This document shows positions 2,120-48,090 of a DNA stretch of 51,135 nt, one piece after another. Source of the stretch: an uncultured Eubacteriales bacterium. Its GTDB lineage: Bacteria > Bacillota > Clostridia > Peptostreptococcales > Anaerovoracaceae. The notes under the pieces are model-generated. The model was not told where the DNA came from and ran no database searches. It was given only the letters and a program-made list of their open reading frames with translations. The stretch spans positions 1 to 51,135 of the forward strand of contig ONAY01000008.1 of the NCBI GenBank assembly GCA_900315895.1, read 5' to 3'. Made by a program: the position numbers and the translations under genes. How positions within the stretch are numbered: position 1 is the stretch's first letter; each line of letters opens with the position of its first letter.

Positions 2120-2151
2120 CCCCGGGACAGCCCCGGGGATTTGACTTTTTT
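2120..2151 (+). terminator. Rho-independent terminator after the nhaC pair
   Basis: A 7-bp stem CCCCGGG/CCCGGGG (2120-2126 with 2132-2138) is followed by a T-rich tract ending at 2151. The T-rich tract overlaps the -35 box of the next promoter. Confidence 0.8.
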
Positions 2152-2169
2152 GCACTTCTTTGGTAGATT
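2141..2169 (+). promoter_or_regulatory. Sigma-A-type promoter of the riboswitch-1 transcript
   Basis: TTGACT (2141-2146), a 17-base spacer, then TAGATT (2164-2169). A start near 2177 would place a small hairpin, GGTAAG/CTTACC at 2182-2198, at the very 5' end of the transcript. Confidence 0.7.
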
Positions 2170-2212
2170 ATTTAGTGTAAAGGTAAGGTTTTCTTACCGC
2201 AAAAAACTTATC

Positions 2213-2435
2213 TGAACATCATCTTCTCCGGACCAAAGCCCTATCCTGGGTGGACCGGGGATCAGGGAACCGGGTGAGAATCCCGGGCATTCACCGATGC
2301 TGTATTTACGGGAGCATATCTTCCTTCGGCGAAAGCCGGTCATTGGGGCGACCTGAGAAGGCGGAAGATATGCGCCGGGCGGATGATCTGCCCTAAACCG
2401 CATGAGCCAGAAGACCGGATGTGTTTCAAAGCCTG
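2213..2435 (+). promoter_or_regulatory. Cobalamin riboswitch 1
   Basis: The conserved blocks of the cobalamin (RF00174) aptamer occur in order: GGGAACCGGGTGAGAATCCC, then the GCCGGTCATTGG region (usual GCCACTG block), then CCTGAGAAGGCG, then GATGAT, and finally GAGCCAGAAGACCGG near the 3' end (usual AGTCAGGAGACC). Adenosylcobalamin or a related corrinoid is the expected ligand. A terminator 23 bases downstream is the likely expression platform, so high B12 should stop transcription before the surface-protein gene at 2525. Its sequence is clearly different from the two - strand riboswitches in this window. Confidence 0.92.
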
Positions 2436-2457
2436 ATTAGTATCGTGAGAAAAGTCG

Positions 2458-2485
2458 GTCACGGCAACCCTGCTGTGGCTTTTTT
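2458..2485 (+). terminator. Intrinsic terminator forming the expression platform of riboswitch 1
   Basis: A 9-bp stem GTCACGGCA/TGCTGTGGC (two G-U pairs) with loop ACCC is followed by six T residues. It lies between the aptamer and the ribosome binding site AAGGAGGA (2513-2520) of the downstream gene. Confidence 0.8.
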
Positions 2486-2524
2486 GAATAAGCCGCAGAC
2501 TAACTATCTTAAAAGGAGGATCAA

Positions 2525-5500
2525 ATGAAGAAAGGATTATTTCAGAGTAAAGCCTTCAGTCTTCTCCTGATCGTGGCTCTCCTCTTCTGCATGGCGCCGC
2601 AGTTGGCTTTCACAGCCTATGCAGATGAGAGCACCCAGTTCGAGGTTTCCGCCTCTGACTGCCAGCTCATCGGAGAATACATGGGTGAAGACGTGTACTA
2701 CGCTACTGCTCCGGTGGGAACCACTGAAGTGGTATTCAAGGACGTTGAAGGCAACATGACAGACGGTATGATCGTCGGACTTCTTTCCGGATACCTGGAG
2801 GGCACCAACGTTGCTCCCATAGCCGGAGACTTCCGGGCCACCTGGGAGACCATGAACTCCAACGACTCCATCACATTCGAAGAAGGAGCCGAGAGTCTGG
2901 ACTACTCCAACGCCTACTTCTACTTCGTTTCAGACGATGACTACAACATGTGCTCATACGTCATCCAGGTACCCGCAGCTCAGGAGGAGATCACTGATTT
3001 CACATCCAATGTGGGCGTCAAGACAGGACCCGTGGAAGACGGCTATACCTATTACGCATATGTTAATGATCCGGATAACCCCAATGCGGATCCCTATGGA
3101 TATGTCACCGTGGAATCCAAAGCTGACCTGTACACCTTGACCGTTCCCTACGGCACACAGGAAGTCACTCTTGATTTCGGCGAGACCGAGACCATCTCGT
3201 ACAATTACACTGAGGACGGTACCTTCCTGGAAGGATCTTATCCCGATCCCACCGTGGGAGAGACCACTACCACCAAGAAGGTGGACAGTAACAATGACGG
3301 CATTCCCGACTACATCTGGGTCCAGAAGCCCTACAATGCGGATTACTCCGGCGGCGAAATGCTCTTCGTCATCGAGCTGGCCTACTCCTACACCTTCACG
3401 GTATCCGTTGACGGCGTGGAGATGACAGAGATCGAGTATACGCCTGACAACTATTCCTATCAGGACTACATGACAGGCACCACACAGACTGTGGGTACAT
3501 ATACCGTCACCATCCCGGCCGGAACTACAGCTGTGGATCTGAATTTCTCAGACAACGTGCTCTGCTACAACTACACCCGTGACGGCCAGTACCTTGGCGG
3601 ACTGTACTCGGATTTCGAGACCGGTTCACCGGAAGCCCTGGGAGTTATGGTCGACTATAGCGACAGCATGACTCAGGCAGATGGTGAGATAGACTACATC
3701 CAGGTCCAGACACCTTATGACAGTGCTTGGAACTCGACTCTGCTCTACACCATAACATTCAAGTATGGAGACGTTATCGGAAGGGAAGAGATCCAAGACG
3801 TCTATGAAATGCTGGTAGCAAAGGCTGCCAAGCTCATGGAAAGCGATGCAAATGCCACCTTCAAGGTAGGCGATTGGTTCATCTTTGACCAGGCAAGAGA
3901 CGGCAGAGAAGTAAATCCTCACTACATCCAGTCTGTAAAGGAATACTTTGACCAGGGCATAGATGGTCTTGGTTCCTCCGATTATCAGTACACCAACTAT
4001 GCCAAGGCCATACTGGCCATAACTGCTCTTGGATACGATGCCAGGACCTTCGCAGATTTCGATCTGTTTACTCTTCTGGCTGATAAGGAAAAGCTGGCGA
4101 CCCAGGGTCTCAATGCCTACATCTGGGCACTGATCGCCTTGGATTCCCACGATTACAACGTACCGGTATCCGAGGACATTCCCAACGAAAACCTCGCTAC
4201 AAGAGATGTTTTGATCGATACCCTGCTCGACGCATATCTTGATGGAGGCGGCTGGGCGATCATAGGAACTGAACCCGACGTGGACATCACATCCATGGTA
4301 GTAGCAGCTCTTGCCCCCTACTATGAAGATAATGATGAAGTACATGACAAGATCGACCAGGCTATCAAATGGCTGTCAAACAACCAGAACGATGACGGTA
4401 CCTTCTCAGCGAAATACAGTGGCACAACAGAGTCCACAGCAGAATCCACTGCCATGGTGGCCATTGCTCTGACCTCCGTCGGTATCGATCCCGCAACCGA
4501 TTCCAGGTTCATCAAGAATGGCAATTCCGTAATGACCGGACTCTGCTCTTTTGCGGTACTGGAGGGAGACAATCCCGGCATGAAGCATATTGCAAACGGT
4601 CCGGTCAATACTCTGGCCACCGAGCAGGGCTACAGAGCCTTCGTATCCTACATGAGATTCCAGGAAGAAAAACGTCCCATCTACGATCTTCTGGACCAGA
4701 TGATCCTCACTAGAGTCTACGGTCCCACCCGTTATGAGACCTCCCTGGAAGTGGCTGAGAGATACATGAAGAACAACTTCTTAACTGAGCTGGACAGCGT
4801 GATCATCGCCACAGGAGATGACTTCCCTGACGCTCTCAGTGGAAGCTCCCTTTCCATAATGAACGAAGCTCCCGTCATCCTCATCAGCAACAAGGTCCAG
4901 AAGTCCCGTGACGACGCCACGGCCTTCATCAAGGAGAACCTTGCGGAGGGCGGCAACGTGTTCATCATCGGAGGCGAAAGCGTAGTCTCCAAAGAATACG
5001 CTGACAGCCTGACTGAACTTGGCTATGAGGTCACCAGATACGCCGGAAGTTCCAGATACGACACCAACCTTCAGATCCTGGACGCCGTCGGTGAATCCGA
5101 TTACCTCCTTGTGTGCTCCGGCATGAACTATGCTGATGCAGCAACGGCTTCCGCCACAGCCCTTCCCGTTCTCCTGGTGGGCAAAAAACTCGAAGCCAGC
5201 CAGCTTGAGTACCTTAAGTCTGCAGGAAAGAAAGAGATCTATGTCATCGGCGGCACCGGCGCGGTAGCTGAAGATATCGCAAACGCTCTGGCTGAATATG
5301 ACACCGACGGAACCGTTCAGAGAGTAGCAGGCGATGACAGGGCTCTCACAGCCAAGGCTGTGGCTGAAGAGTTCTTCGACCTGAAGCCCTACGTCTCCAC
5401 TGTGGTATTCGCCTACGGCGGAAACTTCCCCGACTGCATCTCTGGCGGCCTTCTGGCCTACACCCTGGACGCACCCATCCTCTATGGCGGAGCTCACCAG

Positions 5501-5614
5501 ACCTACACCAACTCTGCTGCTCCATACGTCCAGAACAACATAGTCAAGACTGCCTACATCCTCGGCGGACCCACCCTCATCTCAGATGAGTTCGTGTTCG
5601 GCCTGGATAAATAG
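2525..5614 (+). CDS. Secreted alpha/alpha-barrel protein with cell wall binding repeats, B12-regulated
   Basis: 1029 residues. There is a signal peptide (cleavage after about residue 34, AYA|DE) and an unassigned N-terminal domain. Two tandem copies of a beta-rich module of about 110 residues follow (roughly residues 195-420). Residues about 422-722 are an alpha/alpha-barrel of the prenyltransferase/terpene-cyclase-like superfamily, the fold also used by the N-terminal domain of intrinsic factor and transcobalamin. Three CWB2 (PF04122) repeats from about 728 to the end attach it non-covalently to the wall. The cyclase DxDD motif is degraded (DVDITSM), so an enzyme role is unlikely. It is a single-gene unit between riboswitch 1 and the terminator at 5628. 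B12 capture is inferred from the fold and the riboswitch, not shown. The barrel is paralogous to the lipoprotein at 15405-16445. Confidence 0.85.
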   Translation: MKKGLFQSKAFSLLLIVALLFCMAPQLAFTAYADESTQFEVSASDCQLIGEYMGEDVYYATAPVGTTEVVFKDVEGNMTDGMIVGLLSGYLEGTNVAPIAGDFRATWETMNSNDSITFEEGAESLDYSNAYFYFVSDDDYNMCSYVIQVPAAQEEITDFTSNVGVKTGPVEDGYTYYAYVNDPDNPNADPYGYVTVESKADLYTLTVPYGTQEVTLDFGETETISYNYTEDGTFLEGSYPDPTVGETTTTKKVDSNNDGIPDYIWVQKPYNADYSGGEMLFVIELAYSYTFTVSVDGVEMTEIEYTPDNYSYQDYMTGTTQTVGTYTVTIPAGTTAVDLNFSDNVLCYNYTRDGQYLGGLYSDFETGSPEALGVMVDYSDSMTQADGEIDYIQVQTPYDSAWNSTLLYTITFKYGDVIGREEIQDVYEMLVAKAAKLMESDANATFKVGDWFIFDQARDGREVNPHYIQSVKEYFDQGIDGLGSSDYQYTNYAKAILAITALGYDARTFADFDLFTLLADKEKLATQGLNAYIWALIALDSHDYNVPVSEDIPNENLATRDVLIDTLLDAYLDGGGWAIIGTEPDVDITSMVVAALAPYYEDNDEVHDKIDQAIKWLSNNQNDDGTFSAKYSGTTESTAESTAMVAIALTSVGIDPATDSRFIKNGNSVMTGLCSFAVLEGDNPGMKHIANGPVNTLATEQGYRAFVSYMRFQEEKRPIYDLLDQMILTRVYGPTRYETSLEVAERYMKNNFLTELDSVIIATGDDFPDALSGSSLSIMNEAPVILISNKVQKSRDDATAFIKENLAEGGNVFIIGGESVVSKEYADSLTELGYEVTRYAGSSRYDTNLQILDAVGESDYLLVCSGMNYADAATASATALPVLLVGKKLEASQLEYLKSAGKKEIYVIGGTGAVAEDIANALAEYDTDGTVQRVAGDDRALTAKAVAEEFFDLKPYVSTVVFAYGGNFPDCISGGLLAYTLDAPILYGGAHQTYTNSAAPYVQNNIVKTAYILGGPTLISDEFVFGLDK

Positions 5615-5627
5615 TTGCTGACTCAGA

Positions 5628-5653
5628 CCGGGGCCCTGCGGCCCCGGCTTTTT
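5628..5653 (+). terminator. Rho-independent terminator of the riboswitch-1 gene
   Basis: An 8-bp perfect stem CCGGGGCC/GGCCCCGG with loop CTGC, then CTTTTT. Confidence 0.9.
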
Positions 5654-5661
5654 AATACAAC

Positions 5662-5692
5662 AAAAGACCCAGGGCCTGAGCCCTGGGTTTTC
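5662..5692. terminator. Bidirectional terminator between convergent genes
   Basis: A 9-bp perfect stem ACCCAGGGC/GCCCTGGGT with loop CTGA has T residues on the right and A residues on the left, so it can work in both directions. It would end the long - strand operon finishing at 5705. A near copy of this hairpin ends the ribosomal operon at 26508-26537. Confidence 0.85.
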
Positions 5693-5704
5693 TATTTGAT
5701 TCTT

Positions 5705-8700
5705 TTACTCCGTTGCAGGATATGCAATGGTCTCCGCAATCTCTCTTGACACCGCTCCGCTGCCACCCATGACCACAAGCCTGTATGCTTTGCTGTTCAC
5801 GAATATGGCCCTCGGGTTGTCAGTATATCCTTCCGCCACCAGGATAAGCGGCGCTTCGTAATAGATAGCGCAGGGTCCTCCGGACAGGCCGTCCGGGAAG
5901 GTCTTGCCGCTGGCGATCACTACTGTGTCCAGGTCACCGCCGAAGAACTCCATGGCGATCTTCACCGAAGTATCATATCTGTTGGCCCCGGCGAATCTGG
6001 TTATCTCACCGAAGGGAGCCAGCTGATTCTCCACGCTTTCAGGAACCGCTCCCTTACCACCTGCTATGTAGATCTTGTTTCCCATGGAAGAGGAGTGTTC
6101 TGTCAGATAATCTGTCTGGTCCGCAGTAAGAGTGCTTCCCACAAGGAGGATGGGTCTCTTGGCAGCCGAAGCCGAAAGTGCATCGGCAAACCCCGTTCCT
6201 GAGGCAACTATCAGATCCTCTCCGTCCAGCCCCGCTTCATTGAGCACCTCGGTGTTCGTCGCGAAGCGGTTGCTTCCGGCAAGTCTTATTACCTCTCCCA
6301 CCGTTATACCTTCTGCTACGGCCGGCGTGACAGCACCTGCTCCGCCTACTATGTATACCTTACCTTCATCCGCAAGATTTTCGTTTATGAAGCCCGTCAC
6401 CTTGCTGATGCTGGCCTCATCCTTTCCTACAAGAAGGATCGGGGCGTCTTTTTTGTAAGAAAGATAGCTGGCAGAAAGTGCGTCTGGGAAATCCTTGCCG
6501 CTGGCGACTATAAGTGCATCAAATGCATCCAGTTTCTTTTGCTCCTTAAGATGATTTGCTGCAGCTATAGCTGTGTCGAATCTGGAGGCCCCCGCGATCC
6601 TTATTATGCCGCCTTCCAGGGCTCCGCCGGAACCTGACACTTCGATGGGGACTGAAGCCATGGGCGGGTCATATACAGTACCCGGAACTCCGTCCTTATC
6701 ATTGTAAGTCACCATGTGCTCTCCCAGATCCAGCCTGATATTGATCTCGATGTCATCCGAAGTCAGCGGATCCTGAGGGACTGAAAGGTATTCCGACGGT
6801 ATGATCCTGGAGATGCCGTTGGAGTAGACCGCGGTGAGCTCCATCCCTTCCGGATCGAAGATCTCCCCCGCCTCGTACTTCGTCTTAACTGGCATTTTGG
6901 TCACATCGAGCCTCTCAATGGTGGGTCCGACCATCATCATGTATGCGGAATCATTCTTGAAATATATGTTTCCGTACTCATCAGCTATGGGGCTGCAGAT
7001 AGCGTACTGTGCCTGGGGACCATAGGGTGAGAACAGGCAGTATGCAACCTCGTGGGTGTTTCCGTAGCTGTCTGTTTCAGTAACGGTCCTGTCCGCTTCA
7101 GTCTGTCCCGGCTTGTCCCTTAGAACTCTCAGGACACCAGGTGTATAGTTGTCGAAGAAGTATACATACACCGATCCGTCTTCTTCAGAATATGCCGTCG
7201 TCACCAGGCCGCTGGTCTGCGGATAGCCTTGTGTGGGAACCGTGTATGCGATCTCATTTTTTTCTATGTCGATAACGGTGATATTATGTCCGGTGTATGC
7301 AGAATAGGCCCCTGTTCCTGAAACTCCTATATATGCCCTTCCGTTATAAACACAGGGAGTGGATGTGCTCATGGGCGGTGTGGCAGGGTTTACAGAGCCA
7401 TTGGTCAGGTAAAGAGTCTTGAGAGATTCGCGGTCAAAGGTTCCGTCTTCTTTTATCCTGATGGAGCAGAAATACCCGCCCTTGGATGTGAAGAAGAATC
7501 TATCCGTTTCAGTGTCATAGCAGATGCTGCTGCGGATATCCCCCGTGCAGACATCGTCGATCCTGTCGATCACGACCCCAGTCGTCTTGTCCACCGAAAG
7601 GAGATTGCCCCCTTCAGTTATGAATCCGCTGTCTCCGTCATCGGTTCCTACGATTATATACGTCCTGTCATCCTGTTCTCCGTCGGTTCCGTACCCTGCA
7701 GGTCCCACATAGGCGCCTGCCCAGTAGAAGCCGTTGTCCTTGACCGTCCAGCAAGCAGTCTTAAGTTCCGTGCCGGAGGCGGGATCTTCATCAGTGGTGG
7801 AAACACACACGAAATTGGCCTTTTTGGTCTCGCTGACCCAGAAGCCGGTATAGATGTACCCGTCGCAATAGGATATGGGGCAGTTAGGCTGCCCGCCCAA
7901 AGGATCCTGATACAGCCACAGCGACTCCAGAGTCTCCGCGTTGAAAGCCTGGATCTTGCCGTTGGACAGGGCCACGAAGATCATGCCGTCCGCATATGTG
8001 GGGGAGTTGATGGCAAAAGATGAGCCTGCCGCCATCTGTCCCGAGACCACTGCTTTGCCCGTCATGGGATCGATCTTAAGGATGGTCCTGGATGCATAGG
8101 TATACAGGTATCCGCCTGCCATTATCGGACATCCGGTGGCGTTAGCGCCGTACCCTTCTCCGATCTTGTTTGCCCAGTAGATCGTGGCCTTCTCTCTCTC
8201 ATATGGAAGTGGATAGTCTGTCACTCCGTTATTGTTTTCATCGAATCTGAACCTGGGCCACTCCTCGGTCAGGTCTGTGTTGAGTCCGCTGTTTTCCTGG
8301 GCGTGATCCAGCGTCACATCTATTTCAGTGTCCTCGGTGATGTTCACCTTCCGGGTCACTCCTACGTATCCATTTCTGGTTATGGAGCAGGTGTAATCAT
8401 TGCCGGGCAGCAGTTCAAACCGTCCGTCTTCCCCCTGAGCCACTCTTTCTCCGGTCGTATCGTCCAATACCGATATCAGAGAATCCTCCGGCGTAACGTT
8501 TATCCTGAGAAATACCGGGGGCAGCTTGATAACCAATACTGAATACTCTGAATCCACGTTCTCCTCTTCCGGAGTGGAGACCTTGATCTTAACGTTTTCC
8601 AGCGTGGAATCCGTATTAAGTTCCGCATTGAATCGGAACTTATTGCCGTTTTCAACGCTGCTCCAAGTCTCTTCTCCCAGCGAGACCAGATATTCGCTGT

Positions 8701-10963: not shown

Positions 10964-10977
10964 GTATCCATCCTCCA

Positions 10978-13317: not shown

Positions 13318-13321
13318 ATTA

Positions 13322-15387: not shown

Positions 15388-15404
15388 GCTGAGATTTCCT
15401 TCCA

Positions 15405-18360: not shown

Positions 18361-18371
18361 ATCTGTTGGAT

Positions 18372-18398
18372 GGACCGGGCGGGCGAGCCGCCCGGTCC
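18372..18398 (-). other. Strong intercistronic stem-loop without a T tract
   Basis: An 11-bp perfect stem GGACCGGGCGG/CCGCCCGGTCC with a 5-base loop lies in the 56-base gap between the stop at 18417 and the start at 18360. On neither strand is it followed by a run of T. It therefore looks like an RNA-stabilising or partial-attenuation element rather than a full terminator, leaving read-through into the six-gene tail likely. Confidence 0.7.
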
Positions 18399-18416
18399 GA
18401 AATAATGTTAAGGGCG

Positions 18417-21400
18417 TTATTCAGTTTCTGTTGCAGGTGCTGCTATGGTCTCTGCGATCTCCTTGGATACGGCACCCTTTCCGCCCATTACGATAAGGGT
18501 ACGGGCATTCTTTGTCACGAATAGGTTGGTGGCATGATCCACCCAGTTGCTTCCAACCAGTACGAGAGGTGCATCATATGCGATGGCTACGGGACCGCCG
18601 GAAAGTCCGTCCGGGAAGGCCAGTCCGCTGGCGATGACCATGCTGTCGATGTTTCCGGGGAAGAACTCGTTGGCTACCGCTACCGATGTGGCGAATCTGT
18701 CAGATCCTTCCAGTCTCTTGGCCTCGCCTGTGTAGGCTTCAACTTCTGCCTTTATGCTGTCAGCTACTGCTCCGGGTCCACCTATGACGTAGGTGGTCTC
18801 TGCCAGGCTATTCTTGTTGGCTTCCAGATAGGCCTGCTGATCCTTAGTAAGAGTCTTTCCTACCAGGAAGATGGGCCTTGCGGCAGCGGATGCACTGAGA
18901 GCATCGGCATAGTTCATGCCGGAAGCTATCAGAAGTTCTTCTCCGTCTACGCCTGCCTCTTTGAGGACCTCAAGATTGGTGGCGAATCTGTCGGAGCCGG
19001 CAAGCCTCACTTCTGTTCCGTTAATAGCATCTTCTACGCTCTCGAGGACTGCTCCGGTTCCGCCTACGATGTAGACTGTTCCGCCTGAAGCCAGGTTCTC
19101 ATTGATGTAGGATGTTACCTTGGCGATGCTCTTGTCGTCCTTTCCTACAAGGAGGATGGGCGCATCCTTCACATATGAAAGATAGCTTGCAGAGAGTGCA
19201 TCGGGGAAGTCAGCTCCGCTGGCAACGATGATCTTCTGGAAATCGTCCCAGCCATTGACTTCTTTGAGCTCTTCTGCTGCAGCGATGGCTGTGTCATATC
19301 TGTCCTGCCCGGCAAGCCTTACGATCTCATTATCCGCCTCATACCTGAACAGGATCGCATAGAGGTTCAGCGATACCCAGTTCTTATCGTATTTAGTCTG
19401 TACTCTGATGACCTGCTCGTCGGAAACCACCGCATCGTATGCGACTCCTGCGTGTGCAACGGGAGCCTGCATTCCGTTCACATCTTCCATGTCACCGAAG
19501 CCATAATCGATAAACTGAGTATATCCTGTCTCGTCCGGTTCTATGGTGTAGTAATAAGTGTGGTACTCACCAACGTGATCATTGAGGGTGATGCTTGCAG
19601 TTTCGGTATCCTTCGGTACGGTTACTATGGCAAGGGGAATATGATCCTCCACCTTACCTCCGCTCGTATAGTCTAAGTAGGATGCATCGTAACCACCGTC
19701 CACGATCTCGATGTCTGTGATCTCCTGACCGTCCACCTTCACTGTGAAGCCGTATTTTGTAATGGGCTCTTCCTTCGTCTCTCCGCAGAGCTTACATGTA
19801 TAGGTCTTAACTCCGTCAGCCTCGAAGCTGGCAGGAGTCGTCACTTCCCCGTCATTCCACTGGTGAGCTTCGGGGTCCACCGGGATGACTGTGGTAGAGA
19901 TGGCGATCTCATTTTCACCGTTCTCATCGCTGAAACACTTGCCGCAAAGGCTGCATGTCCAGTACTCGGTATTGCCTGCAGCAACACATGTGGCGGGTTT
20001 TGCTTCGACCTTTGTAAGATCGTGGTCTTCCCTGACCACTACCTTTGTCAGAGACATGATCTGTGTGAATGTGCAGTCTTCAGTTCCGTAAGCCGTAATG
20101 TAGTGAGTTCCGGGCTCATCGAAGGTAAGGGTAACGTCTCCCTCATCGGTTATGGCGTCCTCGATCTCTTCAAGCGCTCCGGTCTCAACATCCACTTCAT
20201 AGATCTGAGCGGAATCCACATCGAAAGCTCCGGAGAAGTTCACCAGTTCTGTTTCGTCCTTGCAGAGGTAAGCCTGCATCGCAAAGAACCCATCGAGCAC
20301 CAGGTCAAGATCCTGACCGGGACATAAGGTGTACGTTCTGCTGTATTCACCGTCAGCATCCGTGAACCAGTTATATGTGTCACCGTAGTAATCGTCTTCA
20401 TAGAAGAAGAATTCTACCAGATCACCATCCTTGACCTCCTGTGTTCCTACGGTCGTACCGTTATATCCTCCGGTGGAAGCCTCTGTTCCGTCATTGGGGA
20501 ACCCGTGGTTCAGGAAGAAACCGCCATAATAGTCATCTCCGTCCACTCCGAACTGCATCGTTACGTTGTTTGCTCTTACCTGGAGATACTCCCCTGCTGT
20601 TTCCGGAGTAAAATCTTCACCGTAAACGAGCTCATGAGCTGCTACCAGAACGTCCAGGGCAGAAACACCGTCTACAGCGTCCGTCAGTCCGTAGGACTCT
20701 GCAAGATCCGAAGATACTTCATATCCGAATTGAGGTGCATGCAGGAATCCACCGCTGAGCTGGGATGTGAAATCCACCTTCACAGACGTGGGCTGCTTTA
20801 CCTGAAGTTCGATATCAGGCAGATCTCCGAGAAGTCCCTGACCTGCGGTGCCGGTAGTCATACCCTTTCCTGTCAGATAACTGCAGCTGCGGTGTCCGCC
20901 TGTCAGTTCACCTGACATTCCTCTCATCAGTATGGCTCCCTGGGTCAGTGAGAAAGTATCTTCCTCCCAATCCGCCGGAATTGTGGTGGTGACTGTATGT
21001 TTCTGGAAACTGAAGTCATACCTTCCCACATTGTTTGCCACCGGGTCTGCAAGCGGCTTATTGTTATCATCCATATAGTATATGGCGAAGTTGTTGTTGT
21101 AATATCCGGAGAATTTCTCCTGAGGGCTGTCTACCTCGCTGAGGATCACAGTCACACTTTCTCCCGGCGTCCACTTGTGATCCAGACTCTGCTCGTTACC
21201 CTGACTGTCTTTCAAGGTAAGTTTTACCTGGCGGGCAGTAAGGATCTGGTAATTGGCTGCGCCGTTCTTTTCCACCTTGACTATGTGACGGCCGTCTGTG
21301 AGGCCGCTTAAGGTGACCGTACCGTCCTCACCGACAGTAACTCCGTCGGTGGAAAATCCGTTGTATGTCAGGCCTGCGTCCGTAACCGTGCTGCGGGCGA

Positions 21401-23261
21401 TGGAGACATTGGTTTCCTCTTCGGGTGTGAATGTGTAAGATGCGCCGTCTTCATCCAGGTAATACAGGATGTCGTGCTCGGCGTCGATGTTGTCACCGGC
21501 AACCTTTTTTACATGCACCAGGTTTCCGGGTCCTACGGGCTCGGTATTGATGGTCATTCCCATGTCAATGCCGCTTCCGTCCGGCTCGCCAACGGTAACC
21601 ACAAAGATTCCTGAAGTCTCAGGCCAGATGTGGGAGAACCTTGTGGAGTCTTCGCCTCCTGCTCCCCATCCGCCAAACTGATCTGATGCATAACCCTGCA
21701 TATAGATCATGGCGTCGTAGGTTACTCTGACAACGGCAAGACCCGTGTCATCACCTGCGGTCAGTGTTGCAAGTCCTGAATTGTGTTGGTCCGGAACTAT
21801 GGTCACCAGATCGCTGGGGTTCCCGTTGATATCCATTACCTCATAATGGAAGTCCGGAATTGCCACCTTGTCATTGGTAAAGCTGTTTATCGCGAACCAA
21901 TTTCTGAAGCAATCCAGCTCCTTGGTAGCGCCGGCCGCCAGAGGCAGATATCCTCGCTCGTTGATGTTCAGATAGATGTCTCCCAGGTCAAGGTTGTTGT
22001 ACTCGAAATTGTGATAGACTGTATCCTTTGTGAAGGTCGCGTCGTTGAGACGAATGTCATCACCTGTTACTTCGATCTTTGTGCCTTCTTTTAATTCACC
22101 TATGTAATTCCAGTATGTTACGCCGTTTGGATTCTGAACGCGATAGAACAGATTCTGATCTTTGACGGGCTCATAGGTGTTCTGCACTCTTCCGTCAGCC
22201 AGGGTCTCGGTCTTGGCTGCGTCCACCCAGTTGTATACGAAATATGAAGCTCCGGGTCCCTTTCCGAGTGTTATGGTTGAGCCTGCGGGTGCAATGATGA
22301 CCGGTCTGTTATCCTGAGGTTCCGCCTTTTCCGTCACCTTGACTTTGGCAACTGCCGGAGCGTTGCAGATATCGCCCGACTCGCCCTCTAATCCAGTAGT
22401 CCAGATCCAGTACTCACCCGGTTCCTCGAAGGTCATCTCAAACAGTCCGTCGGAATCGGTTTCCCATTCTCCCTCTTCACTGTAGAGGTCATATCCGTAG
22501 TAGACAGTGTTCTCAAAAGCATTGTATGAGGTGCCTGCTCCTGAGGCCAGATCTCCAAAAGCTCTGACAAGCGCTGCTTCGATGGGCTCACCTGCGGTTC
22601 CTTCAAAACTGTGGACCACATATCCCGGAGGGCCATCCAGAGTTGCGCTTTCGACGTTTCCTGCTTCAAAGTCTGCGATGTATTCATCTCCCGCAAAATA
22701 CTGGAATCCCGCCTGAGGATCACCCCAGAAAGACCAGCTGGTATAGTGCATCACGTCAACGAAATCTCCGTCATGGACGGTTATTCTGTCGCTGGTCGCG
22801 CCCCATCCCTCATCTTCGAGAGGATACATTCCATTGTAATAGTAGTTAAGATTCTCATCCCACGGCGTACCATCATCTAGGTGCCAGAGGCCTTGGTTAT
22901 AGTAAGTGGAACCGGCAGATCCGCTCAGCACCAGATCCCCATCACCCTGTCCATACTCGTTCAGGACGTATTTGAATACCATCATCAAAGTGACATCATT
23001 CACACCGTCGCCATCTGCATCATAGGGATAATCCCCTGCAAGGGACGGATCCGAGGCCACTTCCGCGATATCTACCGGCACGTAGGCCATATATCCGTTT
23101 TCCGAACCTCCCTGGCTGAAAATGCCGTCATTAGAGTAGGAAACGTAGACCGTACCCTCGAAATCGCTGCCGGTGTCGACCTGACTCGCAAATGCCGCAG
23201 ACGGCATCATGCAGATCAGAACGGTCAGCATCAGTAAAACGCTAACTAACTTCCTTTTCAT
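18417..23261 (-). CDS. Large secreted multi-domain CWB2 protein with transcobalamin-C-like modules, B12-regulated
   Basis: 1614 residues. Signal peptide (AAFA|SQ). A first DUF4430-like region at about 74-204 has NYYYNGMYPLEDEGWG and VHDGDFVDV. Long beta-rich parts follow. A module of about 250 residues at roughly 829-1084 matches the three repeats of the neighbouring protein at 23613-26141. Next come a Cys-rich ribbon region (about 1084-1164), a beta module at about 1169-1310 shared with the protein at 2525-5614, and three CWB2 repeats from about 1312. The start at 23261 follows GAAAGGAGTG. The open frame continues upstream through riboswitch 2, but that part is the aptamer, not protein. It would bind the cell wall and display the DUF4430-like modules. 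A corrinoid ligand is inferred from the domain family and the riboswitch. Confidence 0.82.
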   Translation of the reverse strand: MKRKLVSVLLMLTVLICMMPSAAFASQVDTGSDFEGTVYVSYSNDGIFSQGGSENGYMAYVPVDIAEVASDPSLAGDYPYDADGDGVNDVTLMMVFKYVLNEYGQGDGDLVLSGSAGSTYYNQGLWHLDDGTPWDENLNYYYNGMYPLEDEGWGATSDRITVHDGDFVDVMHYTSWSFWGDPQAGFQYFAGDEYIADFEAGNVESATLDGPPGYVVHSFEGTAGEPIEAALVRAFGDLASGAGTSYNAFENTVYYGYDLYSEEGEWETDSDGLFEMTFEEPGEYWIWTTGLEGESGDICNAPAVAKVKVTEKAEPQDNRPVIIAPAGSTITLGKGPGASYFVYNWVDAAKTETLADGRVQNTYEPVKDQNLFYRVQNPNGVTYWNYIGELKEGTKIEVTGDDIRLNDATFTKDTVYHNFEYNNLDLGDIYLNINERGYLPLAAGATKELDCFRNWFAINSFTNDKVAIPDFHYEVMDINGNPSDLVTIVPDQHNSGLATLTAGDDTGLAVVRVTYDAMIYMQGYASDQFGGWGAGGEDSTRFSHIWPETSGIFVVTVGEPDGSGIDMGMTINTEPVGPGNLVHVKKVAGDNIDAEHDILYYLDEDGASYTFTPEEETNVSIARSTVTDAGLTYNGFSTDGVTVGEDGTVTLSGLTDGRHIVKVEKNGAANYQILTARQVKLTLKDSQGNEQSLDHKWTPGESVTVILSEVDSPQEKFSGYYNNNFAIYYMDDNNKPLADPVANNVGRYDFSFQKHTVTTTIPADWEEDTFSLTQGAILMRGMSGELTGGHRSCSYLTGKGMTTGTAGQGLLGDLPDIELQVKQPTSVKVDFTSQLSGGFLHAPQFGYEVSSDLAESYGLTDAVDGVSALDVLVAAHELVYGEDFTPETAGEYLQVRANNVTMQFGVDGDDYYGGFFLNHGFPNDGTEASTGGYNGTTVGTQEVKDGDLVEFFFYEDDYYGDTYNWFTDADGEYSRTYTLCPGQDLDLVLDGFFAMQAYLCKDETELVNFSGAFDVDSAQIYEVDVETGALEEIEDAITDEGDVTLTFDEPGTHYITAYGTEDCTFTQIMSLTKVVVREDHDLTKVEAKPATCVAAGNTEYWTCSLCGKCFSDENGENEIAISTTVIPVDPEAHQWNDGEVTTPASFEADGVKTYTCKLCGETKEEPITKYGFTVKVDGQEITDIEIVDGGYDASYLDYTSGGKVEDHIPLAIVTVPKDTETASITLNDHVGEYHTYYYTIEPDETGYTQFIDYGFGDMEDVNGMQAPVAHAGVAYDAVVSDEQVIRVQTKYDKNWVSLNLYAILFRYEADNEIVRLAGQDRYDTAIAAAEELKEVNGWDDFQKIIVASGADFPDALSASYLSYVKDAPILLVGKDDKSIAKVTSYINENLASGGTVYIVGGTGAVLESVEDAINGTEVRLAGSDRFATNLEVLKEAGVDGEELLIASGMNYADALSASAAARPIFLVGKTLTKDQQAYLEANKNSLAETTYVIGGPGAVADSIKAEVEAYTGEAKRLEGSDRFATSVAVANEFFPGNIDSMVIASGLAFPDGLSGGPVAIAYDAPLVLVGSNWVDHATNLFVTKNARTLIVMGGKGAVSKEIAETIAAPATETE

Positions 23262-23289
23262 TTGAAGAATCACTCCTTTCTTCATAAAC

Positions 23290-23313
23290 AAAAAACCTTT
23301 GTGCGGGCAAGGT
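23290..23313 (-). terminator. Weak candidate terminator downstream of riboswitch 2
   Basis: On the - strand, ACCTT and AAGGT (5-bp stem, 9-base loop) are followed by six T residues, 28 bases before the start codon. The stem is short. A competing pairing GGGCAAG (end of the aptamer) with CTTGCCC (this hairpin) is possible and could serve as the switch. Confidence 0.4.
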
Positions 23314-23330
23314 CGATAATTGGTCAGTCG

Positions 23331-23365
23331 ATCGCAGGATGCGCCGGGATCACGTTTCCTGCGAT
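23331..23365 (-). other. Stable hairpin in the riboswitch-2 leader
   Basis: A 9-bp perfect stem ATCGCAGGA/TCCTGCGAT with a 17-base loop lies between the riboswitch-2 aptamer and the start codon. No T run follows directly. It is probably part of the expression platform or a spacer structure. Confidence 0.5.
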
Positions 23366-23403
23366 AGGTCCCAAACTGTCTCTCCGCCCTAAACTCTATG
23401 TAA

Positions 23404-23581
23404 AGCGCTTGCCCGGTCTTCTGACTTCGCTTCATCCTCGGAGATCCCTTCTCAACTATACGGTCAATGGTTATGATCTCTTTGTCAGCGTCACAGCAGA
23501 GGAGACTGTACCGGACTCTCACCGGTTTCCCATGGAAACAGTTCCGGGCAAATCGCCCGGAACTGTTTCCGGCTCACGCTA
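23404..23581 (-). promoter_or_regulatory. Cobalamin riboswitch 2
   Basis: The - strand carries the cobalamin aptamer blocks GGGAAACCGGTGAGAGTCCG, TCTCCTCTGCTGTGACGCTG and AAGTCAGAAGACCGGGC. P1 can form between AGCG..GCC (5') and GGGC..CGCT (3'). A peripheral hairpin is unusually long: a perfect 16-bp stem starting GGAAACAGTTCCGGGC. The core is almost identical to riboswitch 3, showing recent duplication. No clear promoter stands between it and the stop at 23613, so its RNA may come from read-through of the riboswitch-3 transcript. Confidence 0.92.
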
Positions 23582-23612
23582 TGCATAATAAACTTATTAA
23601 TGGGTAAATCCC

Positions 23613-26141
23613 TTATCTGAAGACCGGTCTTGCATCATTTCCAAAGACGATCGGTCCGATGATGGGCTTGTCGCCCCAGTCGATCTTCTGGAGTTTATCC
23701 ACTTTTATCTTGGTAAGTGTAAGGATCTGAGTATTTCCCAGTCCTGCAGTTCCGTATGCCGCTACATAATATGTTCCCACAGTGTTGAAGCGGATCGTGA
23801 CTTCGCCTTTATTATTTGTGACAGCTCCGCTTAGGGGAGTGAGGGCTCCTGTTGTCATGTTGACCTTGTAGATCTGCACTCCTTTTACAACATCTGCAGA
23901 GGGGGAATTTACCATCGCAGCCTCATTCTCACAGAAGGGTGCATAGTATGCATGATATCCCTTAAGGATCAGCTTTAAGTTCAGTCCCCTGAATGTCGTA
24001 AAGCTTCTGCTGTATTTCCCGCCGGAACTGGTGAACCAGTTATAGATGTCGCCGGGTGTGTTGTCCTCCAGGAAGAAGAACTCTACCAGATCTCCATCCT
24101 TCACCTCCTGGGCCCTGATTCCGGTCTCATGATATGTGCCATTCTGATTTACGGTACCGTCATTGGCAAGTGCGTGATTCAGGAAGAATCTGCAGATGCC
24201 GGAGTAGCCGAACTGTTTCGTCACGGTATTTCCGGAAAGCGTCAGATAGTTCTGTGCTGTCCCGGCGTTAAAATCATTTCCGTATACAAGCTGGTGAGCT
24301 GCAACCAGCACGTCCAGAGCGGAAACGCCGTTTACTTCATCGCTGTAACCGTATGATTCTGCCAGGTCTGATGAGACCTCATAGCCGAGCTTCGGGGCGT
24401 GAAGGAATGAACCGGATCTCTGTGAAGTGAAATCAACAGCCGCGGTCACAGGTTCGTCACCCTCCACCACGATCTTGGTCAGGGTCAGTACCTGAGTGAA
24501 GCCTATGTTGTTGCTGTAAGCTGTGATCCAGTATTCTCCCGGCTCATCGAAGCAAAGTTCAACTTCGCCCCTGTTGTTCGTTCTGGCTCCGCTTATGGGA
24601 GTAAGTGCACCGGTCTGAATGTCAGTCAGATACAGCTGAGTCTGCCTGACGTTCTGAACGCCTGCAGCGTGTATCATCTCTTCTTCAGTCATGGAATCAA
24701 AGCCGGAATACACATGATATCCTTTGAGAATGAGATCTATATAATCTCCTGCGCCGACCGTTATGGTCCTGGTGTACTCGCCGTCAAAACCAACGAACCA
24801 ATTGTACATGTCACCCGGGGTATTATCCTCCATAAAGAAGAACTCTACCAGATCACCGTCCTTTACTTCCTGCATGACGTTGATCCCGCCGCTTCCGAAT
24901 CCATGGTTCACAAAGAATACCGGACTCAGGGTGTTTCCGAACTGCTTGGATACGATTCCGTTGTTGATCACCAGGTAGTTCTGTGCACTTGCTCCGGTGA
25001 ATGCTGAACCATAAGCCAGTTCATGAGCAGCAACAAGTACGTCCAGTACAGACACTCCCTCGCAATCGTCGGCGTATCCGTAAGATTCAGCGAGATCTGA
25101 AGAGATCACTTTTCCGAACTGAGGAGCGTGAAGGAACTGACCTGACATCTGTGAAGTGAAATCAACAGCCGCAGTCACAGGCTGAGGTTCCACCGCGGTG
25201 ACCTTCGTCAGGGTCAGGACCTGCCTGAATGTACATCCGGCTATGCTGCCTGCTGTGATCCAGTATTCTCCGGGGGCATCGAAGCAAAGAGTGCACTTGC
25301 CTGCACTGTTTGTGACTGCTCCCGGTACTGCGGTGAGGGACCCCGTTCCGGGATCCACTGTATATACCTGAGCGCGGCTGACACTGCTTGCGGCGTTAGA
25401 ATTGACCATCGCCTCCGCATTCTTGCACTGCACCGCATTGTAAACATGATATCCCTTCAGTGTGAGGTCAAATATATCCCCGGTATTCACGGTGAGAGAT
25501 CTGCTGTACTGCCCGTTCATATCCGTGAACCAGTTATACATGTCGGCATAGTCTGCGTCCTCAAGGAAGAAGAATTCGATCAGATCCCCATCATGTACTA
25601 TCTGCGTACCGACTTCTGTGGGGGTGTACAGTCCGCTGCTGCTCTGGACCCCGGTGTTGGCTTTCCCGTGATTAAGGAAAAACTCAGGGCGGGCCGTGGA
25701 GCCGAACTGCATGGTCACCTTATTGTCGGAAACTGTAAGATAATTTTTTGCGGTCGCCTTGGTGAATGAACTGCCGTAAACCAGTTTATGGGCAGCCACC
25801 AGTACGTCCAGAACCGAAACGCCGTTTACAGAATCTGTGTATCCATAGGATTCCGCCAGATTCGAAGCAACAGAGTAGCCGAACTTTGGCGCATGGAGAA
25901 AGCTGCCTGACATCTGGGACGTAAAGTTCACCTTGACCCGGTACAGCGGTTTAAGCTGAAGGTCGGAGTCATCTATAAACGTAAACTCCTTTCCCTGTTC
26001 CGCCATACCTGTGGTGTCTTGCAAGTCTGCCACTTCCTGTAAATTCTCCTGTGAGGCAGGCTGATCTGCCATTACGACAGACGGCATCAGACAGATGGTC
26101 ATCGTAATTATGAGCAGAATACTTAGAACTCTCTTCTTCAT
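23613..26141 (-). CDS. Secreted protein with three tandem transcobalamin-C-like modules, no wall anchor, B12-regulated
   Basis: 842 residues. Signal peptide (VVMA|DQ), then three tandem modules of about 240 residues at roughly 69-315, 324-553 and 564-813. Each module begins VDFTSQ..G.FLHAP, contains VSVLDVLVAAH, FFLNHG and a KDGDLVEFFFLED-type block, and ends in an Ig-like part (LTLTKI). The DVL, NHG and GDxVEF spacing matches the DUF4430 pattern, so I assign the modules to that family with moderate confidence. There is no CWB2 repeat, LPXTG signal or C-terminal membrane segment, so the mature protein may be released or held by partners. A fourth copy of the module sits in the next gene. Riboswitch 3 and its terminator lie directly upstream; AAAAGGAGTG precedes the start. 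Confidence 0.82.
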   Translation of the reverse strand: MKKRVLSILLIITMTICLMPSVVMADQPASQENLQEVADLQDTTGMAEQGKEFTFIDDSDLQLKPLYRVKVNFTSQMSGSFLHAPKFGYSVASNLAESYGYTDSVNGVSVLDVLVAAHKLVYGSSFTKATAKNYLTVSDNKVTMQFGSTARPEFFLNHGKANTGVQSSSGLYTPTEVGTQIVHDGDLIEFFFLEDADYADMYNWFTDMNGQYSRSLTVNTGDIFDLTLKGYHVYNAVQCKNAEAMVNSNAASSVSRAQVYTVDPGTGSLTAVPGAVTNSAGKCTLCFDAPGEYWITAGSIAGCTFRQVLTLTKVTAVEPQPVTAAVDFTSQMSGQFLHAPQFGKVISSDLAESYGYADDCEGVSVLDVLVAAHELAYGSAFTGASAQNYLVINNGIVSKQFGNTLSPVFFVNHGFGSGGINVMQEVKDGDLVEFFFMEDNTPGDMYNWFVGFDGEYTRTITVGAGDYIDLILKGYHVYSGFDSMTEEEMIHAAGVQNVRQTQLYLTDIQTGALTPISGARTNNRGEVELCFDEPGEYWITAYSNNIGFTQVLTLTKIVVEGDEPVTAAVDFTSQRSGSFLHAPKLGYEVSSDLAESYGYSDEVNGVSALDVLVAAHQLVYGNDFNAGTAQNYLTLSGNTVTKQFGYSGICRFFLNHALANDGTVNQNGTYHETGIRAQEVKDGDLVEFFFLEDNTPGDIYNWFTSSGGKYSRSFTTFRGLNLKLILKGYHAYYAPFCENEAAMVNSPSADVVKGVQIYKVNMTTGALTPLSGAVTNNKGEVTIRFNTVGTYYVAAYGTAGLGNTQILTLTKIKVDKLQKIDWGDKPIIGPIVFGNDARPVFR

Positions 26142-26164
26142 CTTAGAAAAACACTCCTTTTCCT

Positions 26165-26193
26165 AAAAAAAAATCTTTGCTTCAAGCAAAGAT
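26165..26193 (-). terminator. Intrinsic terminator forming the expression platform of riboswitch 3
   Basis: On the - strand a perfect stem ATCTTTGC/GCAAAGAT (extendable to 9-10 bp) is followed by eight or nine T residues, ending 24 bases before the start codon at 26141. Confidence 0.9.
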
Positions 26194-26257
26194 ACTACGC
26201 GAAAAAAACCCAACCGGGAATACCCATTTCTCTCTGCCTGAAAAATGTTGGACAGGT

Positions 26258-26407
26258 AGAGCCCGGTCTTCTGACTTCGCCTCATCCTCCGAAACCCCTT
26301 CTCAACTATTCAGTCAATGGATATGGTCCCGTCGTCAGCGTCACAGCAGAGGAGACTGTACCGGATTCTCACCGGTTTCCCGTGAAAACGCATGCGTCTT
26401 CGGCTCT
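26258..26407 (-). promoter_or_regulatory. Cobalamin riboswitch 3
   Basis: P1 is formed by AGAGCC (5') and GGCTCT (3'). The conserved blocks GGGAAACCGGTGAGAATCCG, TCTCCTCTGCTGTGACGCTG and AAGTCAGAAGACCGGGC follow in order. High corrinoid should favour the terminator at 26165-26193 and switch off the downstream genes. If no complete stop occurs at riboswitch 2, this element would control the whole - strand block down to 5705. Confidence 0.93.
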
Positions 26408-26432
26408 TCCGTTCTTATTCTTTTATATTATA

Positions 26433-26461
26433 ATTATAATGGTTTTTCTATTTTCTGTCAA
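26433..26461 (-). promoter_or_regulatory. Perfect consensus sigma-A promoter of the riboswitch-3 transcript
   Basis: TTGACA (26461-26456), exactly 17 bases, then TATAAT (26438-26433). Both boxes match the vegetative consensus in all 12 positions, so the unregulated promoter should be very strong and the riboswitch the main control. Confidence 0.9.
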
Positions 26462-43216: not shown

Positions 43217-43217
43217 T

Positions 43218-48060: not shown

Positions 48061-48090
48061 TTGATGTATCTTGCCTTAAGACGCCCAAGT

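What the first reader, a model, noticed from the sequence alone, without database searches (positions are those of the whole stretch)
2141..26461. Three cobalamin riboswitches over a 24-kb surface-protein block: candidate Gram-positive corrinoid capture system
Seen: three aptamers with the cobalamin core, control elements in front of secreted or anchored proteins, and no cobalamin synthesis gene in the block. Known: cobalamin riboswitches normally repress B12 synthesis or uptake genes; DUF4430 is the family of the transcobalamin C-terminal domain, and intrinsic factor's other half is an alpha/alpha-barrel. Inference: the block encodes a surface apparatus that binds corrinoids and hands them to a membrane transporter encoded elsewhere. 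I know of no described Gram-positive system of exactly this make-up, but I could not search.
Basis: partly seen in the sequence, partly recalled or inferred. Interest (0 to 1): 0.88.

Follow-up and report, generated by a model that had tools for sequence, protein, structure and literature searches.

The report
B12-controlled surface corrinoid-capture operon
A gut clostridium carries a set of surface genes, preceded by vitamin B12-sensing RNAs, that appear to capture B12-like molecules with a two-protein version of our own intrinsic factor, together with an ATP-driven helper module whose 'enzyme' part has lost its active-site residue.

Summary
In detail: three RF00174 cobalamin riboswitches (60, 71 and 85 bits) precede surface-protein genes. 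The operon H-G-F-E-D-C-B encodes a CWB2 wall protein, a membrane-anchored transcobalamin-like beta-domain protein (G), a toroid lipoprotein (F), MoxR, DUF58, a transglutaminase-like membrane protein and a propeller protein. G's model has transcobalamin, intrinsic factor and haptocorrin as its 17 best PDB matches; F is a toroid. Of 79 related loci, 75 carry DUF4430-like domains, 53 an ECF module, 24 MoxR-DUF58-TGase and 43 a riboswitch; 48 of 48 riboswitch hits lie on the toroid's strand. Other contigs of this genome hold an ECF module with a DUF4430 protein and a riboswitch-preceded BtuFCD-like operon. Burroughs et al. 2007 already predicted SLBB-plus-toroid B12 scavenging in Gram-positives. 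Not seen in the papers searched here: the riboswitch link and the MoxR-DUF58-'transglutaminase' module, whose catalytic Cys is absent in 30 of 30 toroid- or DUF4430-linked copies but present in 31 of 32 TgpA-type copies elsewhere. Corrinoid binding is untested.

The parts
2141..2169 (+). promoter-like site in front of riboswitch 3
   Evidence: TTGACT-17-TAGATT, 9 of 12 matches
2219..2437 (+). cobalamin riboswitch aptamer, upstream of gene A
   Evidence: RF00174, 60.1 bits, E 1.7e-12
2457..2480 (+). terminator-like hairpin between aptamer and gene A
   Evidence: 10 pairs followed by a T run
2525..5614 (+). gene A: secreted protein with repeats, an alpha/alpha-toroid domain (about aa 420-725) and three CWB2 wall-binding domains
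   Evidence: Pfam CW_binding_2 2.4e-44, SQHop_cyclase_C 2.1e-4, the latter below Pfam's cut-off; toroid profile hit
5705..10990 (-). gene B: secreted protein with Cadherin-like domain, PQQ-like beta-propeller and CWB2 domains; last gene of the operon
   Evidence: Pfam; propeller found in 15 of 79 related loci
10978..13317 (-). gene C: TgpA-like membrane protein with transglutaminase-like domain whose catalytic Cys position is Ser (GQSEHYA); eight hydrophobic segments by simple hydropathy, two of them overlapping
   Evidence: Transglut_core 9.6e-20; alignment; hydropathy
13322..14434 (-). gene D: DUF58 protein
   Evidence: Pfam DUF58 6.2e-6
14434..15408 (-). gene E: MoxR-type AAA ATPase with PGVGKT and LLLADEINR motifs
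   Evidence: Pfam AAA_3 2.4e-54; sequence
15405..16445 (-). gene F: lipoprotein (lipobox LSAC) consisting of an alpha/alpha toroid
   Evidence: AlphaFold2 model pLDDT 93.2; Foldseek: toroids, transcobalamin among them
16429..18360 (-). gene G: membrane-anchored protein; aa 346-505 (16846-17325) is a transcobalamin-like beta-domain (DUF4430/SLBB)
   Evidence: AlphaFold2 pLDDT 88.8; top 17 PDB matches are transcobalamin, intrinsic factor or haptocorrin
18417..23261 (-). gene H: secreted protein with TCN-like repeat (about 20028-20807) and three CWB2 domains; likely start ATG 23261
   Evidence: Pfam CW_binding_2 2.4e-55; repeat family A5; start read from sequence
23394..23591 (-). cobalamin riboswitch aptamer, upstream of gene H and the seven-gene operon
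   Evidence: RF00174, 71.0 bits; its core is 89% identical to that of the next one over 129 nt
23613..26141 (-). gene I: secreted protein of three TCN-like repeats of about 245 aa
   Evidence: repeat family; profile match to the DUF4430 alignment, hhalign prob 82, E 1.1e-5
26173..26193 (-). terminator-like hairpin between aptamer and gene I
   Evidence: 9 pairs, T8 tail
26244..26422 (-). cobalamin riboswitch aptamer, upstream of gene I
   Evidence: RF00174, 85.1 bits, E 1.2e-19
26433..26461 (-). promoter in front of riboswitch 1
   Evidence: TTGACA-17-TATAAT, 12 of 12

Best explanation
The block is a cobalamin-repressed surface system for capturing corrinoids. When the cell's adenosylcobalamin is low the riboswitches let transcription (or translation) proceed. 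Wall-anchored (A, H, B) and secreted (I) proteins with transcobalamin-like beta-grasp repeats, toroids and a propeller concentrate corrinoids in the wall. At the membrane a two-chain counterpart of intrinsic factor, the toroid lipoprotein F and the membrane-anchored beta-domain protein G, sandwiches the ligand and passes it to a transporter encoded on other contigs: the ECF module with its own DUF4430 partner, and/or the BtuFCD-like importer. MoxR (E), DUF58 (D) and the transglutaminase-like membrane protein (C) are an ATP-driven accessory to this complex. Because C lacks the catalytic Cys it should act as a structural or binding part, not as a cross-linking enzyme. Shown by computation: riboswitches, domains, folds of F and G, operon, conservation, Cys loss. 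Inferred: ligand, hand-off, OFF-type regulation, role of the accessory module.
For: Riboswitches at 60-85 bits, two of them with promoter- and terminator-like elements in place. G's beta-domain model: all 17 top PDB matches are transcobalamin, intrinsic factor or haptocorrin; TM-score 0.66-0.68 against the isolated human beta-domain (5no0, 5np4). F model is an alpha/alpha toroid, with three transcobalamin chains among the 25 matches at E<=0.001. 37 of 38 members of G's domain alignment match Pfam DUF4430; only the window's own misses. 79 related loci: 75 with DUF4430-like domain, 53 with EcfT+EcfA, 43 with a riboswitch; 48 of 48 riboswitch hits on the toroid strand (binomial p 7e-15); 35 of 48 within 500 nt of the next surface gene versus a mean of 5.3 and maximum of 14 in 2000 rounds at random positions. 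Rfam confirmed 18 of 18 own-model hits in the 14 of these loci that I retested. In L055 riboswitch, toroid, DUF4430, CbiQ and an ABC-ABC-ECF_S fusion are consecutive, with CobU further downstream. Own genome: DUF4430-EcfT-EcfA-S component; riboswitch-CWB2 protein-secreted protein-BtuF-BtuC-BtuD-like. Cys loss in 30 of 30 linked copies against 1 of 32 unlinked.
Against: No binding or expression data. The toroid fold is generic: the best match of F is a GH105 hydrolase, followed by terpene synthases; transcobalamin comes only at rank 13, and the sequence profile finds cyclases, not transcobalamin. No match of G's domain reaches E<=0.001. 36 of 79 related loci have no riboswitch at E<=1e-3 within the fetched stretch, among them the same-genus locus L061, which is cut by a contig end; nor was one found in L040 in front of the same-genus homologue of gene A. 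The hit counted for L060 (E 1.8e-4; same sequence as L045) did not reach Rfam's gathering score. The genome also encodes corrinoid-synthesis proteins (CbiK, CbiD, CbiJ), unlike the bacteria described in 2007. The H/I repeats are tied to the family only by a 36-column profile match. Three Cys-less trios (L147, L148, L244) have no detectable toroid or DUF4430 gene within the fetched stretch; in L244 the upstream side is cut by the contig end.
Confidence: 0.82

Rival explanations
1. The surface proteins are ordinary S-layer or adhesion proteins; B12 merely serves as a signal that switches the surface coat.
For: CWB2 domains as in SlpA/Cwp proteins; cadherin-like, propeller and carboxypeptidase-regulatory-like domains.
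Against: The same toroid/DUF4430 genes sit together with ECF modules in 53 of 79 related loci, 33 of these with a riboswitch as well; anchors differ (SLH in L055; CWB2 in 4 of 79). G's domain is transcobalamin-like.
Confidence: 0.08
2. The toroid and beta-grasp proteins bind another ligand (cobalt, a corrinoid precursor only, or an unrelated small molecule) under cobalamin control.
For: Burroughs 2007 allowed precursors and, for archaea, other ligands (PMC1796856, section 7). Foldseek ranks a putative metal-binding protein (3u7z) directly below the transcobalamin group. CbiQ-type proteins also serve cobalt uptake. The organism has corrinoid-synthesis genes.
Against: Best structural matches are exclusively cobalamin carriers (ranks 1-17); in L055 a CobU (cobinamide) gene lies nearby; the S components match the vitamin-type ECF families PF07155 and PF12822.
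Confidence: 0.12
3. MoxR-DUF58-transglutaminase is a generic envelope cassette that only happens to lie in the operon.
For: The cassette is common outside such loci: 31 TgpA-type copies with Cys in the class sample have no toroid or DUF4430 gene nearby. Three Cys-less trios lack detectable toroid/DUF4430 neighbours (L147, L148, L244). 55 of 79 related loci show no complete trio in the fetched stretch.
Against: 24 of 79 related loci carry it; in all 24 MoxR lies on the toroid strand, 19 with a gap of at most 212 nt or an overlap to the preceding locus gene and 5 with 683-776 nt. All 30 distinct linked copies lack the Cys. It co-varies with the propeller gene, 14 of 24 versus 1 of 55.
Confidence: 0.2

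Closest known systems
[quoted passage not shown] 2007, PMC1796856; abstract, passages and part 1 of section 7 seen; figures not held)
   Same: secreted/surface SLBB (DUF4430) domains, alpha/alpha toroids, beta-propeller fusions, paralogous SLBB proteins in one operon, CbiO/CbiQ transporters, proposed B12 scavenging
   Different: toroid and beta-domain on separate proteins F and G; CWB2 anchoring; cobalamin riboswitches; MoxR-DUF58-pseudotransglutaminase; ECF module on another contig; host has corrinoid-synthesis genes. The words riboswitch, transglutaminase, MoxR and DUF58 do not occur in that paper's main text; its Figure 2B with gene neighbourhoods could not be seen.
Animal transcobalamin, intrinsic factor and haptocorrin
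   Same: fold of the beta-domain and toroid architecture
   Different: one chain in animals, two chains here; low sequence identity (11-16% in ranks 1-17)
ECF-CbrT cobalamin transporter (PMC5997447; abstract and passages seen)
   Same: ECF-type corrinoid uptake
   Different: in the passages seen the S component itself is the substrate-binding protein; here an ECF module is encoded with a DUF4430 partner. Homology of the S component to CbrT was not tested.
BtuG/BtuH surface lipoproteins of Bacteroides (PMC6143338, PMC8941943; passages seen)
   Same: surface capture of B12 beside an importer; BtuG2 is a beta-propeller. [quoted passage not shown]
   Different: different architecture, outer-membrane BtuB partner; homology of gene B's propeller to BtuG, or of any part to BtuH, was not tested
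TgpA/MoxR/DUF58 clusters
   Same: gene trio and membrane topology type
   Different: catalytic Cys replaced in all 30 distinct copies linked to toroid/DUF4430 genes but kept in 31 of 32 others

Membership tests
Cobalamin riboswitch (RF00174) | score above the curated gathering cut-off over the full model | tested here: met
   60.1, 71.0 and 85.1 bits against 31.5, model positions 1-189 in all three
Cobalamin riboswitch (RF00174) | ligand binding and control of expression | not testable with these tools
   needs in-line probing or reporter assays
Transcobalamin-like SLBB / DUF4430 | beta-grasp fold like the transcobalamin C-terminal domain | tested here: met
   for G only: top 17 PDB matches (E 1.4e-3 to 3.2e-2), model pLDDT 88.8
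Transcobalamin-like SLBB / DUF4430 | Pfam DUF4430 profile above cut-off | tested here: not met
   window G no hit at E<=10; I 10.3 bits against a cut-off of 23.8. The other 37 members of A4 match at E<=0.01
Transcobalamin-like SLBB / DUF4430 | H and I repeats belong to the same family | tested here: inconclusive
SLBB-toroid-ECF B12 scavenging system (Burroughs 2007) | toroid gene together with SLBB gene | tested here: met
   F next to G; arrangement found in related loci
SLBB-toroid-ECF B12 scavenging system (Burroughs 2007) | CbiO/CbiQ genes in the same operon | tested here: not met
   not in this block; present on contig C27 of the same genome with a DUF4430 protein and beside gene A's homologue in the same genus (L040). 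The EcfT/ABC genes at 47260-49751 lie 21 kb beyond the block
SLBB-toroid-ECF B12 scavenging system (Burroughs 2007) | host lacks key B12-synthesis enzymes | tested here: not met
   CbiK, CbiD, CbiJ present; completeness of the pathway not tested
Transglutaminase (active enzyme) | catalytic Cys in G-x-C | tested here: not met
   Ser in window C; 0 of 30 distinct linked copies have Cys
Intrinsic factor / transcobalamin | toroid and beta-domain in one polypeptide | tested here: not met
   F and G are separate genes overlapping by 17 nt
Intrinsic factor / transcobalamin | cobalamin binding | not testable with these tools
   no docking or binding assay available

The most novel reading that the evidence does not exclude
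Firmicutes own an ATP-powered extracytoplasmic unloading machine for corrinoids: a split intrinsic factor (toroid lipoprotein plus membrane-anchored beta-domain) whose clamp is opened or assembled by a MoxR ATPase acting through DUF58 and a membrane pseudotransglutaminase that has exchanged catalysis for ligand or protein binding. This would be a new way of powering vitamin hand-off across a thick cell wall.
Probability: 0.3. Interest if true: 0.88.

Novelty: new variant of a known kind. Interest (0 to 1): 0.7.

Why it matters
[quoted passage not shown] These loci give a directly testable parts list: a two-chain bacterial counterpart of intrinsic factor, its anchors, its candidate transporters and its regulation. 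They also give a concrete functional context for some MoxR-DUF58-transglutaminase cassettes and a case in which a whole set of linked copies has given up the transglutaminase active-site residue. The bacterial origin of animal intrinsic factor, proposed in 2007, could be examined on living relatives.

Tried and rejected
Sequence-only search of the toroid profile against PDB: finds squalene-hopene cyclases and other cyclases, not transcobalamin. Sequence profile of the DUF4430-like alignment against PDB: nothing significant; the link came only from the fold. Profile of the H/I repeats against PDB: only two weak scaffoldin hits. A corrinoid enzyme in the block: MoxR (E) shows sub-cut-off similarity to cobalto- and magnesium-chelatase ATPase subunits (33.8 bits against a cut-off of 779 for the cobaltochelatase model), taken as general AAA kinship. 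Considered and dropped: 'TGase cross-links the capture proteins to the wall', because the Cys is missing; 'the EcfT/EcfA genes at 47260-49751 of the window are the dedicated transporter', because they lie 21 kb beyond the block and the EcfT there matches CbiQ far more strongly (E 9e-49) than the two corrinoid-locus EcfTs tested do (E 4e-7 and 2e-6). The Pfam-ranked transglutaminase control (30 ORFs at 29 loci, all Cys) is biased, as the profile rewards Cys, and its neighbourhoods were not tested; so an independent control drawn by the TgpA_N domain was added. There 35 of the 44 places listed outside the window were fetched; 3 had no transglutaminase core and were dropped, leaving 32; several stretches are short because the contig ends. 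A search with MoxR alone (40 of 119 family genomes at E<=1e-40) was not used for counts. Own profile thresholds for EcfA pick up ABC ATPases in general, and EcfT also picks the window's distant copy. Literature: the listings of searches, and the passages seen in eight papers, show none that links MoxR/DUF58/transglutaminase to B12 or reports cobalamin riboswitches on these surface genes. Most listed papers were seen only as title and start of abstract, supplements were not searched, and the library lacks most subscription journals, so this is not proof of absence.


Full report
OBSERVATION. Rfam finds three RF00174 matches in the window, all over the whole model. The cores of two aptamers (23411-23539 and 26261-26389) are 89% identical over 129 nt, pointing to a local duplication. 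Two leaders look complete by simple pattern scans, with promoter, aptamer, terminator-like hairpin, ribosome-binding site and start codon; the counts of such patterns are close to those in shuffled sequence, so only the 12-of-12 promoter stands out by itself. For the middle aptamer no promoter or terminator was detected. H, G, F, E, D, C and B lie on one strand with gaps of at most 56 nt or overlaps (with the start of H corrected): an operon of seven genes and about 17.6 kb behind the middle aptamer. I has its own aptamer upstream, and A is alone on the + strand.

WHAT THE PROTEINS ARE. A, B and H carry three CWB2 stretches each, the wall-binding module of Clostridioides S-layer proteins (for A and H, PDB matches cwp6, cwp8 and S-layer chains). 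F has a lipobox; G has an N-terminal membrane anchor; C has about seven N-terminal hydrophobic segments (two overlap) and one after the transglutaminase-like domain (simple hydropathy). F was folded with an alignment of 44 sequences: pLDDT 93.2, an alpha/alpha toroid. Foldseek against PDB returns 25 matches at E<=0.001, mostly terpene synthases and cyclases with some glycoside hydrolases and prenyltransferases; transcobalamin appears at ranks 13, 15 and 21. The fold is right for an intrinsic-factor alpha-domain but not specific. The domain at G aa 346-505 was folded with 38 sequences: pLDDT 88.8. No match reaches E<=0.001, but ranks 1-17 (E 1.4e-3 to 3.2e-2, probability 0.96-1.00) are transcobalamin, intrinsic factor or haptocorrin without exception, and the TM-score against the isolated human beta-domain is 0.66-0.68. 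37 of the 38 aligned members match Pfam DUF4430 (best E 7.4e-21); only the window's own does not, although it is 37% identical to a Clostridium cadaveris member over 154 columns. The H and I repeats form a family of their own with a profile-profile match to the DUF4430 alignment: probability 82, E 1.1e-5, 36 columns. That is suggestive, not settled.

RELATED LOCI. The toroid protein has homologues in 59 of 119 genomes sampled from the family. Home-made profiles and a covariance model of the riboswitch core (12 training sequences; search) gave: 79 of 79 toroid (by construction), 75 DUF4430-like, 53 EcfT plus EcfA, 24 complete MoxR-DUF58-TGase, 12 with both, 14 with neither, and 43 with at least one riboswitch hit at E<=1e-3. 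All 48 hits are on the toroid's strand. 35 of 48 lie within 500 nt of the next surface gene and 3 have none downstream, against a mean of 5.3 and a maximum of 14 in 2000 rounds of random placement. One of these loci (L062) contains a training sequence (that of L047). Rfam independently confirmed 18 of 18 model hits in 14 loci that I picked, the weakest at model E 6.8e-8. The weaker hits were not retested, except that of L060, whose sequence (as L045) had not reached Rfam's gathering score. 36 of 79 loci show no riboswitch; a number of them are cut by contig ends, but not all. Titles include Clostridium, Desulfosporosinus, Ruminococcus, Kurthia, Lysinibacillus, Sporosarcina, Siminovitchia and Paenibacillus. 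A telling locus is L055: riboswitch, SLH-anchored toroid, DUF4430 protein (Pfam 3.6e-20), CbiQ, a fusion of two ABC ATPases with an ECF S component, and CobU further down.

THE TRANSPORTER OF THIS ORGANISM. The genome (six RF00174) has, on a 5.4-kb contig, a DUF4430 protein with a hydrophobic N-terminus (Pfam 3e-15), EcfT, a double ATPase and a protein with an ECF S component. In the same genus a DUF4430-EcfT-EcfA set lies upstream of the homologue of gene A (L040). A second candidate is a riboswitch-preceded operon with a CWB2 protein, an 881-aa secreted protein, and proteins matching Peripla_BP_2, FecCD and ABC_tran, i.e. BtuF-, BtuC- and BtuD-like. A further riboswitch precedes CbiK and CbiD genes, followed by CbiJ, so the organism may also make corrinoids; pathway completeness was not tested.

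In all 24 trio loci MoxR lies on the toroid's strand; the gap to the preceding toroid, DUF4430 or ECF gene ranges from overlap to 212 nt in 19 and from 683 to 776 nt in 5. In L059 the transglutaminase-like protein is even fused to a toroid. Among 15 TGase matches in 14 of 119 family genomes, nine lie beside toroid hits (compared by eye) and a tenth, L146, has a diverged toroid and a DUF4430 gene found with profiles. The trio goes with the propeller gene: 14 of 24 trio loci against 1 of 55 others. At the catalytic Cys position the linked copies have Ser 15, Ala 6, Asp 6, Asn 2 and gap 1: 0 of 30 distinct copies have Cys (31 rows, four of them the same contigs as other rows, plus L146, L152 and L153). 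Two of the 30 (L110, L113) are degenerate in the whole motif and have lost the histidine as well. Controls: 30 ORFs at 29 loci ranked by Pfam all have Cys (biased towards Cys, neighbourhoods not tested). From 196 genomes of the class, 35 of 44 listed TgpA_N places outside the window were fetched and 32 gave a transglutaminase core; none of the 32 has a toroid or DUF4430 gene in its stretch, 31 have Cys and one (L244) Ser (Fisher p 1.4e-16, which ignores relatedness). Within the family five further MoxR-DUF58-TGase clusters lack a toroid or DUF4430 gene nearby: three have Cys (L149-L151) and two do not (L147, L148). L148 lies beside a Peripla_BP_2 protein and an ABC ATPase. So Cys loss was found in every linked copy, but not only there. 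That the Cys is the catalytic residue is recalled knowledge of the family. A search of 42 control and other sources with the riboswitch model gave four hits, only in L146, L152 and L153, which are toroid/DUF4430 loci; none of the 29 generic transglutaminase loci has one.

HOW IT PROBABLY WORKS. Under low AdoCbl the leaders permit expression. Wall-bound and secreted proteins bind corrinoids; F and G meet at the membrane surface and enclose the ligand as the two halves of intrinsic factor do; the ligand passes to an ECF S component or to the BtuF-like protein. MoxR, DUF58 and the pseudotransglutaminase couple cytoplasmic ATP hydrolysis to something outside, most simply assembly or opening of the F/G clamp. 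The first steps rest on fold, regulation and gene context; the last is a guess from operon conservation and Cys loss.

KNOWN OR NEW. Burroughs et al. 2007 proposed the general kind. New relative to that paper, judged by the text seen and word counts (its figures are not held), are the riboswitches, the CWB2 anchoring, the presence of the system in a genome with corrinoid-synthesis genes, and the MoxR-DUF58-pseudotransglutaminase module. A 2013 survey of RNA regulons (PMC3766115, passages seen) classes cobalamin regulons into synthesis, B12 transport, cobalt transport and isozymes, and the word surface does not occur in its main text; its supplements were not seen. [quoted passage not shown] I therefore class the finding as a new variant of a known kind.

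Noticed in passing
10978-13317 and loci L040-L153: The transglutaminase-like protein of this locus type has lost the catalytic Cys in all 30 distinct toroid/DUF4430-linked copies aligned, a set of pseudotransglutaminases.
   Followed up: yes
L148 (unnamed relative, same family): A Cys-less MoxR-DUF58-TGase trio sits beside a Peripla_BP_2 protein and an ABC ATPase instead of toroid/DUF4430 genes, suggesting that the module may also serve BtuFCD-type importers.
   Followed up: partly
L147 2-2722 and L244: Two Cys-less trios without toroid or DUF4430 neighbours in the fetched stretch; L147 lies behind an LRR surface protein, L244 starts near a contig end. Their substrate is unknown.
   Followed up: partly
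L007 6976-15267 (own genome): Cobalamin riboswitch, CWB2 protein, 881-aa secreted protein whose C-terminal part resembles the BtuF-like protein (domain E 3e-20), then BtuF/C/D-like genes.
   Followed up: partly
L059 7189-10104 (unnamed relative): Transglutaminase-like membrane protein and an alpha/alpha toroid in one ORF.
   Followed up: no
L154, L155 (unnamed relatives): MoxR-DUF58 pairs followed by a protein that matches the home-made TGase profile but no transglutaminase domain in Pfam.
   Followed up: no
L041 3555-4602 / L061 2392-3439: In the same-genus relative the toroid lipoprotein gene is split over two overlapping frames; left as found.
   Followed up: no
L008 7725-9884 (own genome): Cobalamin riboswitch in front of a CbiK-like cobaltochelatase with a lipoprotein-type N-terminus and a second small lipoprotein-like gene, ahead of cbiD; an extracytoplasmic CbiK seems odd in a Gram-positive (own impression).
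   Followed up: no
41949-42025 (-): S10-Clostridia ribosomal-protein leader (RF03136, 40.8 bits).
   Followed up: no
42311-44138 (-): Indigoidine synthase A-like protein (pseudouridine glycosidase family, recalled) next to a PfkB kinase.
   Followed up: no
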